Shown piece after piece: positions 54,666 through 62,681 of a stretch of 64,000 nt of DNA. The stretch's first letter is position 1. Each line of letters starts with the position of its first letter. Below the pieces are notes generated by a model. The model had not been told where the DNA came from, searched no databases, and worked only from the letters and a program-made list of their open reading frames with translations. Source of the stretch: Mycolicibacterium aubagnense (GTDB taxonomy: Bacteria > Actinomycetota > Actinomycetes > Mycobacteriales > Mycobacteriaceae); the NCBI RefSeq assembly GCF_010730955.1, contig NZ_AP022577.1, positions 434,001 to 498,000 of the forward strand. The letters are read 5' to 3'. The translations under genes and the position numbers were made by a program.

Positions 54666-55667
54666 CTACTCAGCACTGTTTCCGTTGGACAGTTTCGAGT
54701 CGGCGTCATAGCCCTCAGCCACGGTCTTCAGCCCGACAAGGGTGTCGAGGGGTCCATCTATACGCCCAACAACGCCGAAGCCGCCCTCGGGTGTCTCTGT
54801 GTAGACCAACTGCACCTTTGCGTCGCCAAGAGCGCCTGACCCAGTGGAGAAGTATGTGCCGTCGTACACGCCGTGGCGAAGCCTCACATCAGCGACGATT
54901 CGTTTGGCCTCGAAGGTGACGATGACATTGACCAGCTCTAAAAGAATCTCGCAGCCCGCAGGGTCAAGCCCTTTGACATAGATCTTCTGGCCGTTGAATT
55001 TCGGGTTTGGGTACTCACCCGTGGCGAGGTATTGAAACTTGCCTGTGCCGTATTGCTGCTCACCTTCGCGGTCACTCTCATCCCAAAGCTCTTGGTGAGA
55101 TTGTGTGTGGTGTTTCGTGATCTGCTCTACGAGACCGTGGAACATCCCGACTTGTACGCCATCGCCGGTGAAGATCGGACAAGTTCCGACCATTTCTCGT
55201 CGATCCATTTGGCCATCAAGAGAAACGACTATCTCCGTCTTCTTCACGAGGGTGACCCAGTGGTGGTACTCCGCTTGCGTAGCACTGTTGACGACTTGCC
55301 CGACGAACTCCTTGGTGACTTCACCGGGTGTGATCGTCTTGATGCCGAACTTGGTGGCGCTCTCTAACGCTTCGGCTGTGAACCCCGAAGACGACACAAG
55401 AATCTTGACGTTGGCGCCAAGGCGCTCGAATTTCGTCTTCGCCTGCTCGACCCACAGAACATCCTGCTTTCGCTTCGTATCCCGAGCTTCGATGGCCACG
55501 ATGGTCCGGTGACCCGCGACCGCACCGACGGCGACGATGTCAATCTCGCGCTTCTTTCCCCCGTCGAGGGTCTCGATTTCAACAGATTCGTGGACGATCG
55601 CACCGTCGCTCTTCGCCATGGTCAACAGCGCGATGAGTCTCTGAAATTCGTTAGACCGCTTCGGCAT
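54666..55667 (-). CDS. Restriction endonuclease-like protein (Mrr-type PD-(D/E)XK fold)
   Basis: 333 aa. N-terminal nuclease-like domain: GKKREIDIVAVG (Asp), TIVAIEARDTKRKQ (E-x-R where E/Q-x-K is usual) and VEQAKTKFERLGANVKILVS, then SGFTAEALESATKFGIKTIT, the strand-helix typical of Mrr. The C-terminal 200 residues are an unrecognised beta-rich domain. No methylase is adjacent, so it would act on modified or foreign DNA, or have another role. Lower codon bias than the core genes suggests transfer. Confidence 0.7.
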   Translation of the reverse strand: MPKRSNEFQRLIALLTMAKSDGAIVHESVEIETLDGGKKREIDIVAVGAVAGHRTIVAIEARDTKRKQDVLWVEQAKTKFERLGANVKILVSSSGFTAEALESATKFGIKTITPGEVTKEFVGQVVNSATQAEYHHWVTLVKKTEIVVSLDGQMDRREMVGTCPIFTGDGVQVGMFHGLVEQITKHHTQSHQELWDESDREGEQQYGTGKFQYLATGEYPNPKFNGQKIYVKGLDPAGCEILLELVNVIVTFEAKRIVADVRLRHGVYDGTYFSTGSGALGDAKVQLVYTETPEGGFGVVGRIDGPLDTLVGLKTVAEGYDADSKLSNGNSAE

Positions 55668-58382: not shown

Positions 58383-58925
58383 TTCTATGCACGCGATGCC
58401 ACGCAGCTCCCCCAGGGTGGGTCAGGCCGAGGTGACTACGACACTTATTGATAAGGCCAATATTCAGTGAACCACGCCATGTTCATCTGATGAATCATGC
58501 GGGCCCAAGTGCGCTTCTCGCGCCGCGCCGTCTCGATATGGCCAAAGCGCCTCGACGCCAACGGCTTACAGGAGCTACATGAAATTGCTGCGCCACCGTT
58601 CCGGTGCGACCGCTGCGGGAAGTTGATCTTCATCGAGAAGCGGCAGCCGATGCGCTGAGCACGCGTTGCCACGACGAGAATCGGAGTTAGCGGGTCGGTG
58701 GCCGCCGCGGGTCGCCAGCGCCGAGTCGCCCGGCTGGTGAGCATTCGGTGCACGCCGGGTAGTGCCGGGGATCTCTGTGACGGCGCGGTCCACGTCACCG
58801 GCGGCCGCTGGGTGGAACCGTTGCCAGCACGGCTCATTGCGTTCACTGCGGGTTACCAGGGGTGGGGCCGTCGTAGATGTCGAATTACCTGCGGTGCAAC
58901 CAGAAACGCGGAAGACTGTCGACAC
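58383..58925. other. 543-bp spacer with dispersed repeat copy 2
   Basis: CATCTGATGAATCA at 58484-58497. A frame open from 58698 joins the next gene but residues before 58926 look non-coding (Arg/Cys-rich). No other gene supported. Confidence 0.4.
58484..58497 (+). repeat. Dispersed repeat copy 2 (CATCTGATGAATCA)
   Basis: One base different from copy 1 (54501) and one from copy 3 (63239). Lies about 100 bp before the start of the hydrolase gene on the other strand. Confidence 0.5.
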
Positions 58926-61241
58926 GTGGCGACAGCACTTTCGAAGATCGAACAGGACTGGTTCGACGAACTTAGACGCAAAGCCGAAGCCGGTGAGTGT
59001 CTCGACCGCGCGCCCAGGGTGGTGGATGATAGGAAATCCGTTGCGTCGTGGCCGGCCGAGCGGATATTCCCCGCCGCAGCCCTGCGAGCAGTGCTGACCG
59101 ACCCCACAATTCAGGTCGACCCGCGTGGGATCCGCATCAGAGGCGTCAGATTCACTGACGTCGTCGACCTTGGACACGTGGACTTCGCCCATCCCCTTCG
59201 CTTCGAAAATTGCGTCCTAGATAAATCCTTAAACCTTGGGTACTCGCGTATTCGTGGGCTCACGCTATCCAACGTCACCGTCTGCGGTGGCCTGCTCGTG
59301 ACAGGGGCAACTATTGACGGCCACCTCGATCTCACAGGAACTGTCCTGGTCGGCACGGCGCTTGTGCCGGCGCTTTGCCTTCGCGGCGCTACCGTCACAA
59401 ACGACGTGTTGGCGCGCCACGGGTTCCGCTCCATCGGCGTAATCGAAGCGCGCGGTGTGGTCATCGGCGGCGATCTGGACCTCACGGGAGCCACTCTCAT
59501 CAGGCCTAAGGGCAAAAGACTTGCAGCGGCTCTGGACGGCGCCCAGATCGCAGGCCATGTGTTCGCCGCTCCCGACGACAAGTATCCGGGGGCGCGCTTT
59601 AGGGGGGCCGTCAGTGCTATCGGGCTGACCGTCGGCCATACGCTCGACCTTGACGGCGCCAAGGTCAGCTGCAGCGATGACCGCAAGGGCTCGAGCAGTT
59701 TCGCGCTAACGCTTGACCTGGCCCATATCAAGTCAAACATGTACGCGGGGAGAGGCTTTACGGTCGTGGGCACGTTCCGCGCTGTGGGCGTCACCGTTGA
59801 CGGGAAGCTCTATTTGGATGGTGCCGCGCTCCACAATCCCCTTGCAGAAGATGATTCGGACAGATGGGCATTGCTCCTCGACGAGGCGAAGGTCGCTGGG
59901 GGCGTGTCCGCCGGGGAAATCGAAGTGGACGACCAGGTCCCATACGCATTCGATTCCAAGGGAATGGTCTCTTTTCGCGGCGCCACCATCGGCCGGGACC
60001 TGGCGATCAACGGTGCCAGGCTCTGGTGCCCGGGCTCTGCGGGCAGAGTAGGCAGGGCTGCCCTGGACATCGCCGGTGCAAATATCACCGGAAGCGTCCT
60101 TGCGGGCGAGGGCGATGAGCCTGCCACGACGCCGAGCCGGATCGACGGCACGTTGCGCGCGGTCGGGGCGACGGTGGGCTCCCGGCTTGATCTCAGCGGA
60201 GCTAGCGTCGTGACTCCGGGAGGAATCGCGCTGAACTTGGAGGCACTGACGGTTTCGCGGCTGGATCTGACACCCAAACACTGTGACGGGTTGGTGAACC
60301 TGGTCAGGGCGCAGGTCGCCGACTTGGTCGTTGGCAAGCGCCCTCCGAGACCAGTTGTGGCGACTGGATGGACTGTCGGCGACATGCGCAGTCCGGAGTC
60401 TTCGGGCGGCTTACGCGAAAATTGGAGGCTCGCATACAGGTGGCTCAACTCGGGGGCGCCGGACGTCAACCGCTCGTGTGCGGAACGCCGATCAGTGCGG
60501 CGGCTGCTGGTGAGGTGGCGGCGGCGTTCTAGGTGGGTGCGCAGGCAAACGGACTGGTTGCGTCAGTATGCTCCCGAAGCGGCATCGCCAAGCTCGCCTG
60601 AAAGAGCCCGATCAGTGCGGATGCTGCTGGTGAGGTGGCGGCGGCTTTCGGGGTGGGTGCGCAGGCACACAGCCTGGTTGCGAAGGAACAAAGCGGTATC
60701 GGTACAGCCCTGGCATGCGCTGGCTGATGTCTACGACCGCATCGGTGATCCCGCCGCCGCTCGGCACTTGCGGTTCGCCGCGGAGAACAAGGTCACCGGC
60801 CAATCACCGTTGGTGCCGCGAATGGCGCGCGGTTTGTATTGCGTTCTCGCAGGCTATGGCTATTATCCTTTGGCGTCTATCGCGAGCATGATCGTTTTTT
60901 TGGCGTTGAGCGTTGGGATTGTGCATGGGTACCGCGCAGATATCGTGCCCGCCACCCAGTCAGGTTCTCAGCACTCGGTAGTTGCTTCTGCGCCGCCGGT
61001 CGTTGCTCCGTCGCAGCCGGAAGCCGCGAAACAGTTTGGGCACAAGAACCCTTGGTTGGAATCGATCACCTACACGGTCGACGATGTACTACCGCCGGCC
61101 GGTCAGCAGAACAGGGACTGGACTATTCCGTCGACTGCCTCGATCTGGCTGGTGCTAGTGCTGCCCGCCATCAAGCTCGCGCTGTGGGGGTCAAGTCCAG
61201 GGACGTGGTGTATGACGTCGTCGTGTGATTCTTCGAGGTAG
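58926..61241 (+). CDS. Beta-helical membrane-associated protein, 3' end replaced by IS
   Basis: 771 aa from GTG 58926 (upstream frame to 58698 is doubtful). Residues about 60-520 are repeats of the form GxLDLxGA (GHLDLTGTVLVGTALVPALC; GDLDLTGATL; SRLDLSGASV), a right-handed beta-helix like proteins often labelled membrane-associated oxidoreductase in actinobacteria. Then a basic region with a duplicated segment (LLVRWRRxSxWVRRxTxWLR, twice) and two membrane helices. An IS entered the last helix at ALWG; the final residues now come from the IS. The lost 3' end lies at 62612-62681. Confidence 0.72.
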   Translation: MATALSKIEQDWFDELRRKAEAGECLDRAPRVVDDRKSVASWPAERIFPAAALRAVLTDPTIQVDPRGIRIRGVRFTDVVDLGHVDFAHPLRFENCVLDKSLNLGYSRIRGLTLSNVTVCGGLLVTGATIDGHLDLTGTVLVGTALVPALCLRGATVTNDVLARHGFRSIGVIEARGVVIGGDLDLTGATLIRPKGKRLAAALDGAQIAGHVFAAPDDKYPGARFRGAVSAIGLTVGHTLDLDGAKVSCSDDRKGSSSFALTLDLAHIKSNMYAGRGFTVVGTFRAVGVTVDGKLYLDGAALHNPLAEDDSDRWALLLDEAKVAGGVSAGEIEVDDQVPYAFDSKGMVSFRGATIGRDLAINGARLWCPGSAGRVGRAALDIAGANITGSVLAGEGDEPATTPSRIDGTLRAVGATVGSRLDLSGASVVTPGGIALNLEALTVSRLDLTPKHCDGLVNLVRAQVADLVVGKRPPRPVVATGWTVGDMRSPESSGGLRENWRLAYRWLNSGAPDVNRSCAERRSVRRLLVRWRRRSRWVRRQTDWLRQYAPEAASPSSPERARSVRMLLVRWRRLSGWVRRHTAWLRRNKAVSVQPWHALADVYDRIGDPAAARHLRFAAENKVTGQSPLVPRMARGLYCVLAGYGYYPLASIASMIVFLALSVGIVHGYRADIVPATQSGSQHSVVASAPPVVAPSQPEAAKQFGHKNPWLESITYTVDDVLPPAGQQNRDWTIPSTASIWLVLVLPAIKLALWGSSPGTWCMTSSCDSSR
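61181..61188 (+). repeat. Target site duplication, left copy (GCTGTGGG)
   Basis: 8 bp repeated at 62612-62619 on the far side of the IS, as expected for IS256-family insertion. Confidence 0.85.
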
Positions 61242-62611
61242 TTGGGTCAGGCGGGCAGTGCCGCGGGGGTAGCCTCCTGTTCGGTTGGGGTGTCGTTGAC
61301 GGTGCGTGATTTGCTCAGAACGTCGAGGCCGAGGTAGCGCCGCGACTCGGCCCATTCGTCGTGTTGTTCGGCCAGCACTGCTCCGACGAGACGGATCAGG
61401 GCCGCGCGGTCGGGGAAGATGCCCACGACGTCGGTGCGCCGGCGGATCTCCTTGTTGAGTCGTTCCTGGGGATTGTTGCTCCAGATCTGGCGCCAGATCT
61501 GCTTGGGGAACGCGGTGAACGCCAGCAGATCCGGCCGCGCCGCTTCGAGGTGATCGGCGACATTGGGCAGCTTGTCGGACAATGCGTCGATGATCCGATC
61601 ATATTGAGCAGCAACGGATTCAGCGTCAGGTTGGTCGAACACCGAGTGCAGCAGGGTGCGCACCCAGGCCACGAACTGGGAGTGACGGACATCAGGTTGG
61701 TCGTGTAGTGGGTTCTGCAGCGCTGCCACGCCGCTCCGGGCAGGGTGGCCCCGATGGCGGCGACCAGCCCGGCGTGGGCGTCGCTGGTGACCAGTTTGAC
61801 CCCGGACAGGCCGCGGGCGGTCAACGACCGCCAGAACGTCAACCAGCCCGCCCCGTCCTCAGCGGTCGTGACATCGATTCCCAGGATCTCGCGGTAGCCC
61901 TCGGCGTTGACCCCGACGGCGATCAGGGCGTGCACGTTGACCACCCGGCCGGCTTCACGCACCTTGAGCACCAGAGCGTCCGCAGCGACGAACGTATACG
62001 GGCCGGCATCGAGCGGCCGGGTCCGGAACGCCTCCACGGCGGCGTCGAGTTCCTTGGCCATCACCGACACCTGCGACTTCGACAACGACGTGATGCCCAG
62101 GGTCTCGACCAGCTTGTCCATCCGCCGCGTCGAGACACCAAGCAGGTAACACGTCGCCACCACCGTGGTCAGGGCCCGCTCGGCGCGTTTACGGCGCTCC
62201 AGCAGCCAGTCCGGGAAGTAGGATCCTTGCCGCAGCTTCGGGATCGCAAGATCCAAAGTCCCTGCACGGGTGTCGAATTGACGGTGTCGGTAGCCGTTGC
62301 GGGAATTGGTGCGCTCAGCCGAGCGTTCGCCGTAGCCGGCACCGCATAGGGCGTCGGCTTCGGCGCCCATCAGGTGTGGATGAACGTGGCCAGCAGCTCG
62401 CGCAGCACGTCGGGATGGGCAGTGGTGAGTCGTTCGGCCAGCACAGTGGGCAGATCGATATTGTGGGCAGTGGTCATCGCGTCGATTCCTTTGCTCGAGT
62501 GACTTTGGACGGTCTCTCGAAGAATCACGCGATGACCTTCAATCACTCGGCTACGACACGCCGGTACCGCTGATCAGGTCCGACTCGTACACCACCTTGA
62601 TGGACGCAACC
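61189..62611 (-). mobile_element. IS256-family insertion sequence, IS1081-like (1423 bp)
   Basis: Terminal inverted repeats at 61189-61215 and 62585-62611 agree at 19 of 27 positions, both starting GGT and sharing GTCCA and GTGGTGTA. Flanked by the 8-bp duplication GCTGTGGG. It encodes one transposase on the minus strand that closely follows the mycobacterial IS1081 sequence but is broken by two frameshifts. Inserted in the 3' end of the beta-helical protein gene. Confidence 0.92.
61247..62477 (-). pseudogene. IS256-family (IS1081-like) transposase with two frameshifts
   Basis: Starts at ATG 62477 (MTTAHNIDLPTVLAERL). A missing base near 62372 makes FIHT run into TGA instead of FIHTLMGAEAD; a second missing base near 61668 breaks SSWP from WVRTLLHSVFDQPDAE. 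Joined frames give about 410 residues with the whole DDE set: VAADALVLK, LVTSDAHAG, and Glu in ERLNKEIRRRTDV. Needs two corrections to be active, so the element is presumably immobile on its own. Confidence 0.9.
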
Positions 62612-62619
62612 GCTGTGGG
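62612..62619 (+). repeat. Target site duplication, right copy (GCTGTGGG)
   Basis: Pairs with 61181-61188. Confidence 0.85.
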
Positions 62620-62681
62620 CTTTGGCTGCTCTCTTCCTGGCCGGGGTGGCAGGCCTACTTCGGAACAAAGGCGTTCGGTAA
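62612..62681 (+). pseudogene. Severed 3' end of the beta-helical protein gene
   Basis: Removing the IS and one GCTGTGGG copy restores the frame: ...KLALW continues ALAALFLAGVAGLLRNKGVR and stops at TAA 62679-62681, completing the last membrane helix with a basic tail. Confidence 0.85.

What the first reader, a model, noticed from the sequence alone, without database searches (positions are those of the whole stretch)
58926..62681. IS1081-like element cuts the last helix of a large beta-helical membrane protein; the ancestral gene can be rebuilt exactly
The ORF ends in residues coded by the IS. Deleting 61189-62611 plus one GCTGTGGG copy restores a frame that ends in a membrane helix and the basic tail RNKGVR. 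Ends, duplication and frame all agree. The insertion is probably recent, since the severed end has no further damage. The altered protein would lose membrane anchoring.
Basis: seen in the sequence. Interest (0 to 1): 0.72.

Follow-up and report, generated by a model that had tools for sequence, protein, structure and literature searches.

The report
Jumping element clips mycobacterial membrane-protein gene
A mobile DNA element of a common mycobacterial kind has landed in the last codons of a gene for a large beta-helical membrane protein and replaced its tail; an uncut version of the protein exists in public data, so this is a clear but ordinary gene interruption.

Summary
An IS256-family (IS1081-like) element at 61189-62611 with a perfect 8-bp duplication interrupts a gene in a Mycobacterium genome. 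The ORF runs 17 codons into the element; the severed 3' end (62620-62681) still encodes the missing tail. Compared as separate pieces, both match one uninterrupted database protein, P0001: upstream piece 826 of 830 residues, downstream piece its last 19. The 15 other rows of the alignment end the same way; one frame-disturbed record (P0003) and 19 distant relatives lack the strict motif.

Two corrections. 'Loses membrane anchoring' is not supported: a stronger hydrophobic helix (residues 645-670) is intact. 'Recent' is likely right, but mainly because 25 of 27 full-length copies carry no substitution.

The element is one of about 28 copies. The host gene is a sporadic accessory gene of unknown function. 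Ordinary biology, low interest.

The parts
58926..61188 (+). host part of the interrupted gene; large beta-helical membrane protein (a longer possible start lies at 58698)
   Evidence: several homologues begin near 58926
59103..60395 (+). predicted parallel beta-helix, about residues 60-490
   Evidence: block pLDDT mostly 80-98 here, four blocks 60-74; fold comparison
60488..60562 (+). first copy of a 75-bp direct repeat inside the gene, 120-bp spacing
   Evidence: among the 16 rows only the window and P0001 have this extra stretch
60608..60682 (+). second copy of the repeat, 89% identical
60858..60935 (+). intact hydrophobic stretch, residues 645-670, a candidate membrane anchor
61181..61188 (+). 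target-site duplication, left copy
61189..62611 (-). IS256-family (IS1081-like) insertion sequence, 1423 bp as assembled
61189..61214 (+). left terminal inverted repeat, imperfect
   Evidence: 18 of 26 positions match the right end
62586..62611 (-). right terminal inverted repeat, imperfect
61189..61241 (+). element-coded tail of the current ORF (17 residues and stop; its first codon begins with base 61188)
61396..62370 (-). transposase piece, N-terminal and middle part
   Evidence: Transposase_mut positions 38-266 of 379
61247..61729 (-). transposase piece, C-terminal part in another frame
   Evidence: Transposase_mut positions 271-379 of 379
62612..62619 (+). target-site duplication, right copy
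62620..62681 (+). severed 3' end of the host gene, still encoding the original C-terminus
   Evidence: (62622-62681): identical to the last 19 residues of P0001

Best explanation
An IS256-family element, closely related to mycobacterial IS1081-type elements, transposed into the last codons of an accessory gene for a large beta-helical membrane protein and made the usual 8-bp target duplication. The gene now ends 17 codons inside the element. The product keeps its beta-helix, its first hydrophobic helix and part of its last hydrophobic stretch, but swaps the conserved C-terminal 20 residues for element-coded ones. Shown: element, duplication, changed ORF end, and an uninterrupted database protein. 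Inferred: copy-out/paste-in transposition (from family membership), recent timing, and altered rather than abolished membrane insertion. The broken transposase frame in this copy is most likely a residual long-read assembly error.
For: Exact 8-bp duplication at the element ends. 26 of 29 matching stretches examined have an exact 8-bp duplication. Transposase_mut and IS256 models hit. P0001 matches the upstream piece at 826 of 830 residues without gaps and contains the downstream piece exactly. 15 of 15 other rows of alignment A1 keep the C-terminal motif, and 6 of 7 homologous loci from other genomes of the genus end with it or nearly so. Recency: 25 of 27 full-length copies carry no substitution. 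Assembly error: 51 deletion events, 0 insertions, 6 substitutions; 43 of 44 single-base deletions in homopolymer runs; five copies are identical and full length. The pattern fits what PMC8812927 (passages seen) says of short-read polishing in repeats.
Against: P0003, 53% identical, does not end with the motif; its record also departs from the family near the first hydrophobic helix, so it looks frame-disturbed. L037, a weak homologue (28% identity), ends differently. P0001's source column is blank ('-'), a mark the tool uses for proteins of the window itself, although P0001 differs from the window at four residues and at its end; so I cannot name its strain or see its DNA, and what its 23 member sequences are was not examined. 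The IS-copy deletions could in part be real. Membrane topology is predicted only and the model is of modest to low confidence there.
Confidence: 0.95

Rival explanations
1. The transposase deletions are real: this copy is a decayed, non-autonomous element, and the insertion or its decay is old.
For: The frame is broken in this copy, and some deletions recur in several copies (11, 9, 8 and 5 copies at the four commonest sites), as shared ancestry or gene conversion could give. Of 12 other genomes listed with two matches over the whole query, 5 have copies of unequal length (G012, G054, G096, G140, G158), though some of these pairs are different elements.
Against: Decay should bring substitutions: none in 25 of 27 full-length copies. 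Deletions lie almost only in homopolymers, with no insertions. The recurrent deletions occur in many combinations. In 7 of those 12 genomes the two copies are of equal length (G004, G011, G055, G102, G151, G184, G195, which scored only two candidates per genome). Long ORFs elsewhere in the window are open; this is no measured error rate.
Confidence: 0.12
2. The element-coded tail has been adopted and the current ORF end is the functional form in this strain.
For: The truncated ORF is open with no other damage against P0001 and keeps the beta-helix and one clear hydrophobic helix.
Against: None of 37 listed homologues ends this way, and the conserved tail is lost. No sign of selection on the new tail can be seen from one genome.
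Confidence: 0.05
3. The insertion abolishes the protein (a null allele by misfolding or degradation).
For: The cut falls inside a conserved hydrophobic stretch, with conserved residues on both sides.
Against: About 97% of the protein's length is unchanged and the first hydrophobic helix is intact. There is no expression or stability evidence either way.
Confidence: 0.3

Closest known systems
IS1081 and other IS256-family elements of mycobacteria
   Same: Transposase_mut/IS256 transposase, 8-bp duplications, imperfect ends, many copies; listed relatives are named 'IS256 family transposase', some 'IS1081'
   Different: A distinct element. The nearest listed plasmid-borne copy is 89.5% identical and the nearest in the other genomes of the genus searched is 98%. 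A record named IS1081 transposase from BCG matches at 301 of 490 aligned columns with 69 gap columns, that record carrying an extra internal stretch.
ISCth4 (IS256 family, copy-out/paste-in)
   Same: 8-bp duplications, most copies flanked by them, a subterminal conserved motif (PMC7780238, passages seen); both ends here share TGTA
   Different: AT-rich target preference is reported there; of the 26 exact duplications here, 20 have five or more G or C of eight (counted by eye). The mechanism was not tested here.
Pentapeptide-repeat proteins (Pfam Pentapeptide_3; MfpA/Qnr)
   Same: Pfam Pentapeptide_3 just above its cut-off (29.9 against 27 bits) and a long predicted beta-helix; one relative is named pentapeptide repeat-containing protein; Foldseek's top row, not significant, is QnrB1 (E 0.042), with MfpA at ranks 10 and 21
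   Different: Large, with a helical C-terminal part and two hydrophobic stretches. A loose home-made pattern finds at most 2 contiguous pentapeptides.
Parallel beta-helix tailspikes and polysaccharide lyases
   Different: About 10% identity; no Foldseek match at E <= 0.001. A shared fold shows no function.

Membership tests
IS256 family of insertion sequences | Mutator-type (Transposase_mut) transposase | tested here: met
   4e-93 and 1.8e-39 for the two pieces; NF033543; the first piece above its cut-off, the second, shorter one below
IS256 family of insertion sequences | 8-bp target-site duplication | tested here: met
   exact here and in 26 of 29 stretches examined
IS256 family of insertion sequences | terminal inverted repeats | tested here: met
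   imperfect, 18 of 26
IS256 family of insertion sequences | single intact transposase ORF | tested here: not met
   not met in this copy as assembled; met in another copy of the same genome, L008, 434 aa. The claim made is that this is a copy of such an element, broken or misassembled, not that it is autonomous.
IS256 family of insertion sequences | copy-out/paste-in transposition through a circle | not testable with these tools
   needs experiments
[quoted passage not shown]
   home-made loose pattern: longest run 2; Pfam Pentapeptide_3 marginally above cut-off; not filed as a member
Pentapeptide-repeat protein superfamily | right-handed quadrilateral beta-helix | tested here: inconclusive
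   beta-helix predicted; Foldseek found no match at E <= 0.001, its top row being QnrB1; the VIA second look lists tailspikes first; handedness and shape were not measured

The most novel reading that the evidence does not exclude
The interrupted gene belongs to an undescribed, sporadic, mainly actinobacterial family: a long parallel beta-helix followed by a helical region and two hydrophobic C-terminal stretches with a conserved basic tail. This strain then carries a natural allele that separates the tail from the rest and shows what the tail is for.
Probability: 0.2. Interest if true: 0.35.

Novelty: new member of a known kind. Interest (0 to 1): 0.14.

Why it matters
It is a clean example of an insertion whose uninterrupted protein can be found in databases, and a caution: frame breaks inside multicopy elements of long-read assemblies should not be read as decay. 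Element insertions into accessory genes are otherwise commonplace.

Tried and rejected
Rejected: that the 8-bp match is chance, and that the ORF end is ancestral. Rejected as unsupported: loss of membrane anchoring. A first single-protein scan of genome contigs found no relative; the alignment scan found 13 loci. Synteny (tblastn at E <= 1e-8, ORFs of 120 aa or more from a 32-kb home region against 19-20 kb around homologues in four genomes of the genus and the 13 loci): apart from the gene itself, the only hits were ORFs overlapping it and one ORF that matched elsewhere in L074. PADLOC gave no hit for six proteins and NCBIfam none for the host protein, both at E <= 0.01. Foldseek gave no match at E <= 0.001. 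MfpA/Qnr are absent from the 50 VIA rows shown, which excludes nothing. Naming the species failed: a plasmid search with a flank from the second contig gave no match, and a protein search with the neighbouring hydrolase (120 of 2886 rows shown) gave no named near-identical protein. Plasmid and genome-contig searches may leave out records very near the window (their own notes). Paper searches were made; the label membrane-associated oxidoreductase together with pentapeptide repeat found no paper. Papers seen as passages only: PMC8145042, PMC8812927, PMC12046097, PMC3914561, PMC7780238. Rows dropped: P0003 and P0017-P0037 were not in alignment A1 (15 of 37 listed proteins used, plus the window); the C-terminus count covers all 37. 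L028 and L029 were left out of the deletion counts (27 of 29 stretches used). The first copy comparison was made without turning the copies to one strand, so its difference counts are meaningless for about half of the rows; it was redone. Its duplication table stands. An earlier count said 25 of 29 exact duplications; the recount is 26 of 29.

Full report
WHAT IS THERE. The ORF that starts at 58926 (longest possible start 58698) runs to a stop at 61239-61241. From 61189 to 62611 lies a 1423-bp element flanked by GCTGTGGG at 61181-61188 and 62612-62619. Its ends are imperfect inverted repeats, 18 of 26 positions. On the minus strand it carries an IS256/Mutator transposase (Pfam Transposase_mut; NCBIfam transpos_IS256). 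The last 17 residues of the current ORF are coded by the element.

ORGANISM. The genome has 6,321,928 bases in 2 contigs. A homologue in a genome of the same genus lies on a 6,003,144-base contig (G110). So the genus is taken to be Mycobacterium; no call names the species (tried).

UNINTERRUPTED PROTEIN. I did not. A protein search returned P0001 (850 aa, cluster of 23 member sequences). Its source column is blank, a mark the tool uses for proteins that the window itself encodes; but as returned P0001 differs from the window at four residues and at its end, so I read it as another allele. The host piece upstream of the element matches its residues 1-830 at 826 of 830 without gaps. The piece downstream of the element, translated apart, reads LAALFLAGVAGLLRNKGVR and a stop, identical to the last 19 residues of P0001. 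In alignment A1 all 15 other rows keep the tail. Among all 37 listed homologues, 17 carry the strict motif. The 20 without it are P0003 and 19 more distant proteins (P0019-P0037), many of which still end in a hydrophobic stretch and a basic residue or two. None ends like the current ORF. P0003 counts against a uniform C-terminus; its sequence also departs from the family near the first hydrophobic helix, which suggests a frame-disturbed record. Of seven homologous loci in other genomes of the genus, six end with the motif or nearly so (L036 has Q for R); the weak homologue L037 does not.

CONSEQUENCE FOR THE PROTEIN. The predicted model (mean pLDDT 75.9) has a long beta-helix over about residues 60-490, a helical region, a helix at 649-668 and a last helix at 740-768; the last two are of modest to low confidence. 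Hydropathy peaks are 2.27 for residues 645-670 and 1.72 for the clipped last stretch, against 2.36 in P0001; a stretch inside the beta-helix reaches 1.76, so 1.72 by itself does not show a membrane helix. So one clear hydrophobic helix is intact and the last one is weakened. 'Would lose membrane anchoring' goes beyond the evidence. More likely the C-terminal end is mis-inserted or less stable. This is inference.

THE ELEMENT IN ITS GENOME. 27 stretches span the whole element at 99-100% identity, the window's own included; L028 (with L030) and L029 are partial or diverged. L028/L030 and L029 lie in an overlap between the start and the end of contig 1 (97-99% identical), so there are about 28 distinct copies, two of them on the second contig. 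Of 29 stretches examined, 26 have exact 8-bp duplications (L029 among them). L006 has one mismatch, L009 has five of eight, and L028 is a match cut short. In the genus, 131 of 198 genomes, the own one included, have some match at E <= 0.001; the nearest full-length one is 98% identical (G140). On plasmids the best listed match is 89.5%, on a Mycolicibacterium grossiae plasmid.

RECENT, AND PROBABLY INTACT. Among the 27 full-length copies there are 51 deletion events, no insertions and 6 substitutions (5 in L027, 1 in L025). Of 44 single-base deletions, 43 lie in homopolymer runs of two or more, whereas 605 of 1428 positions lie in such runs. Five copies are identical and full length; one of them, L008, was seen to encode a 434-aa transposase. 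Passages of PMC8812927 say that long-read assemblies keep homopolymer indels, and that short-read polishing leaves them in repeats because reads align to the error-free copy. That fits this pattern. Long ORFs elsewhere in the window are open, though this is not a measured error rate. I therefore read the broken transposase of the window copy as a likely assembly error. Against it: a few sites are deleted in many copies, and 5 of 12 other genomes with two full-length matches also have copies of unequal length (7 of 12 equal). The near-absence of substitutions supports a recent burst; gene conversion could also keep copies alike.

COMPARISON WITH KNOWN THINGS. Copy-out/paste-in transposition with 8-bp duplications is described for ISCth4 of this family (PMC7780238, passages). 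IS1081 is an IS256-family element with 9 copies in one M. tuberculosis isolate (PMC12046097, passages). The finding is one more insertion of this kind.

VERDICT. A new member of a known kind, low interest.

Noticed in passing
window 60488-60682: Imperfect 75-bp direct repeat (89%, spacing 120 bp) inside the host gene; of the 16 aligned proteins only the window and P0001 have the extra stretch.
   Followed up: partly
L028 and L029 (near the start and at the end of contig 1 of the own genome): These stretches overlap at 97-99% identity, with many differences in the element copy: it looks like an untrimmed circular overlap in the assembly.
   Followed up: partly
own genome, 27 element copies (L001-L027): Homopolymer-biased differences between copies that are almost only deletions, as expected of unpolished repeats in a long-read assembly.
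   Followed up: yes
window 54666-55667 (-): ORF with an Mrr-type restriction endonuclease domain, in the lowest-GC 2-kb block of the window (0.585).
   Followed up: no
P0064 (database protein): A BCG record named IS1081 transposase carries an extra internal stretch against the transposase of L008, possibly a record error.
   Followed up: no
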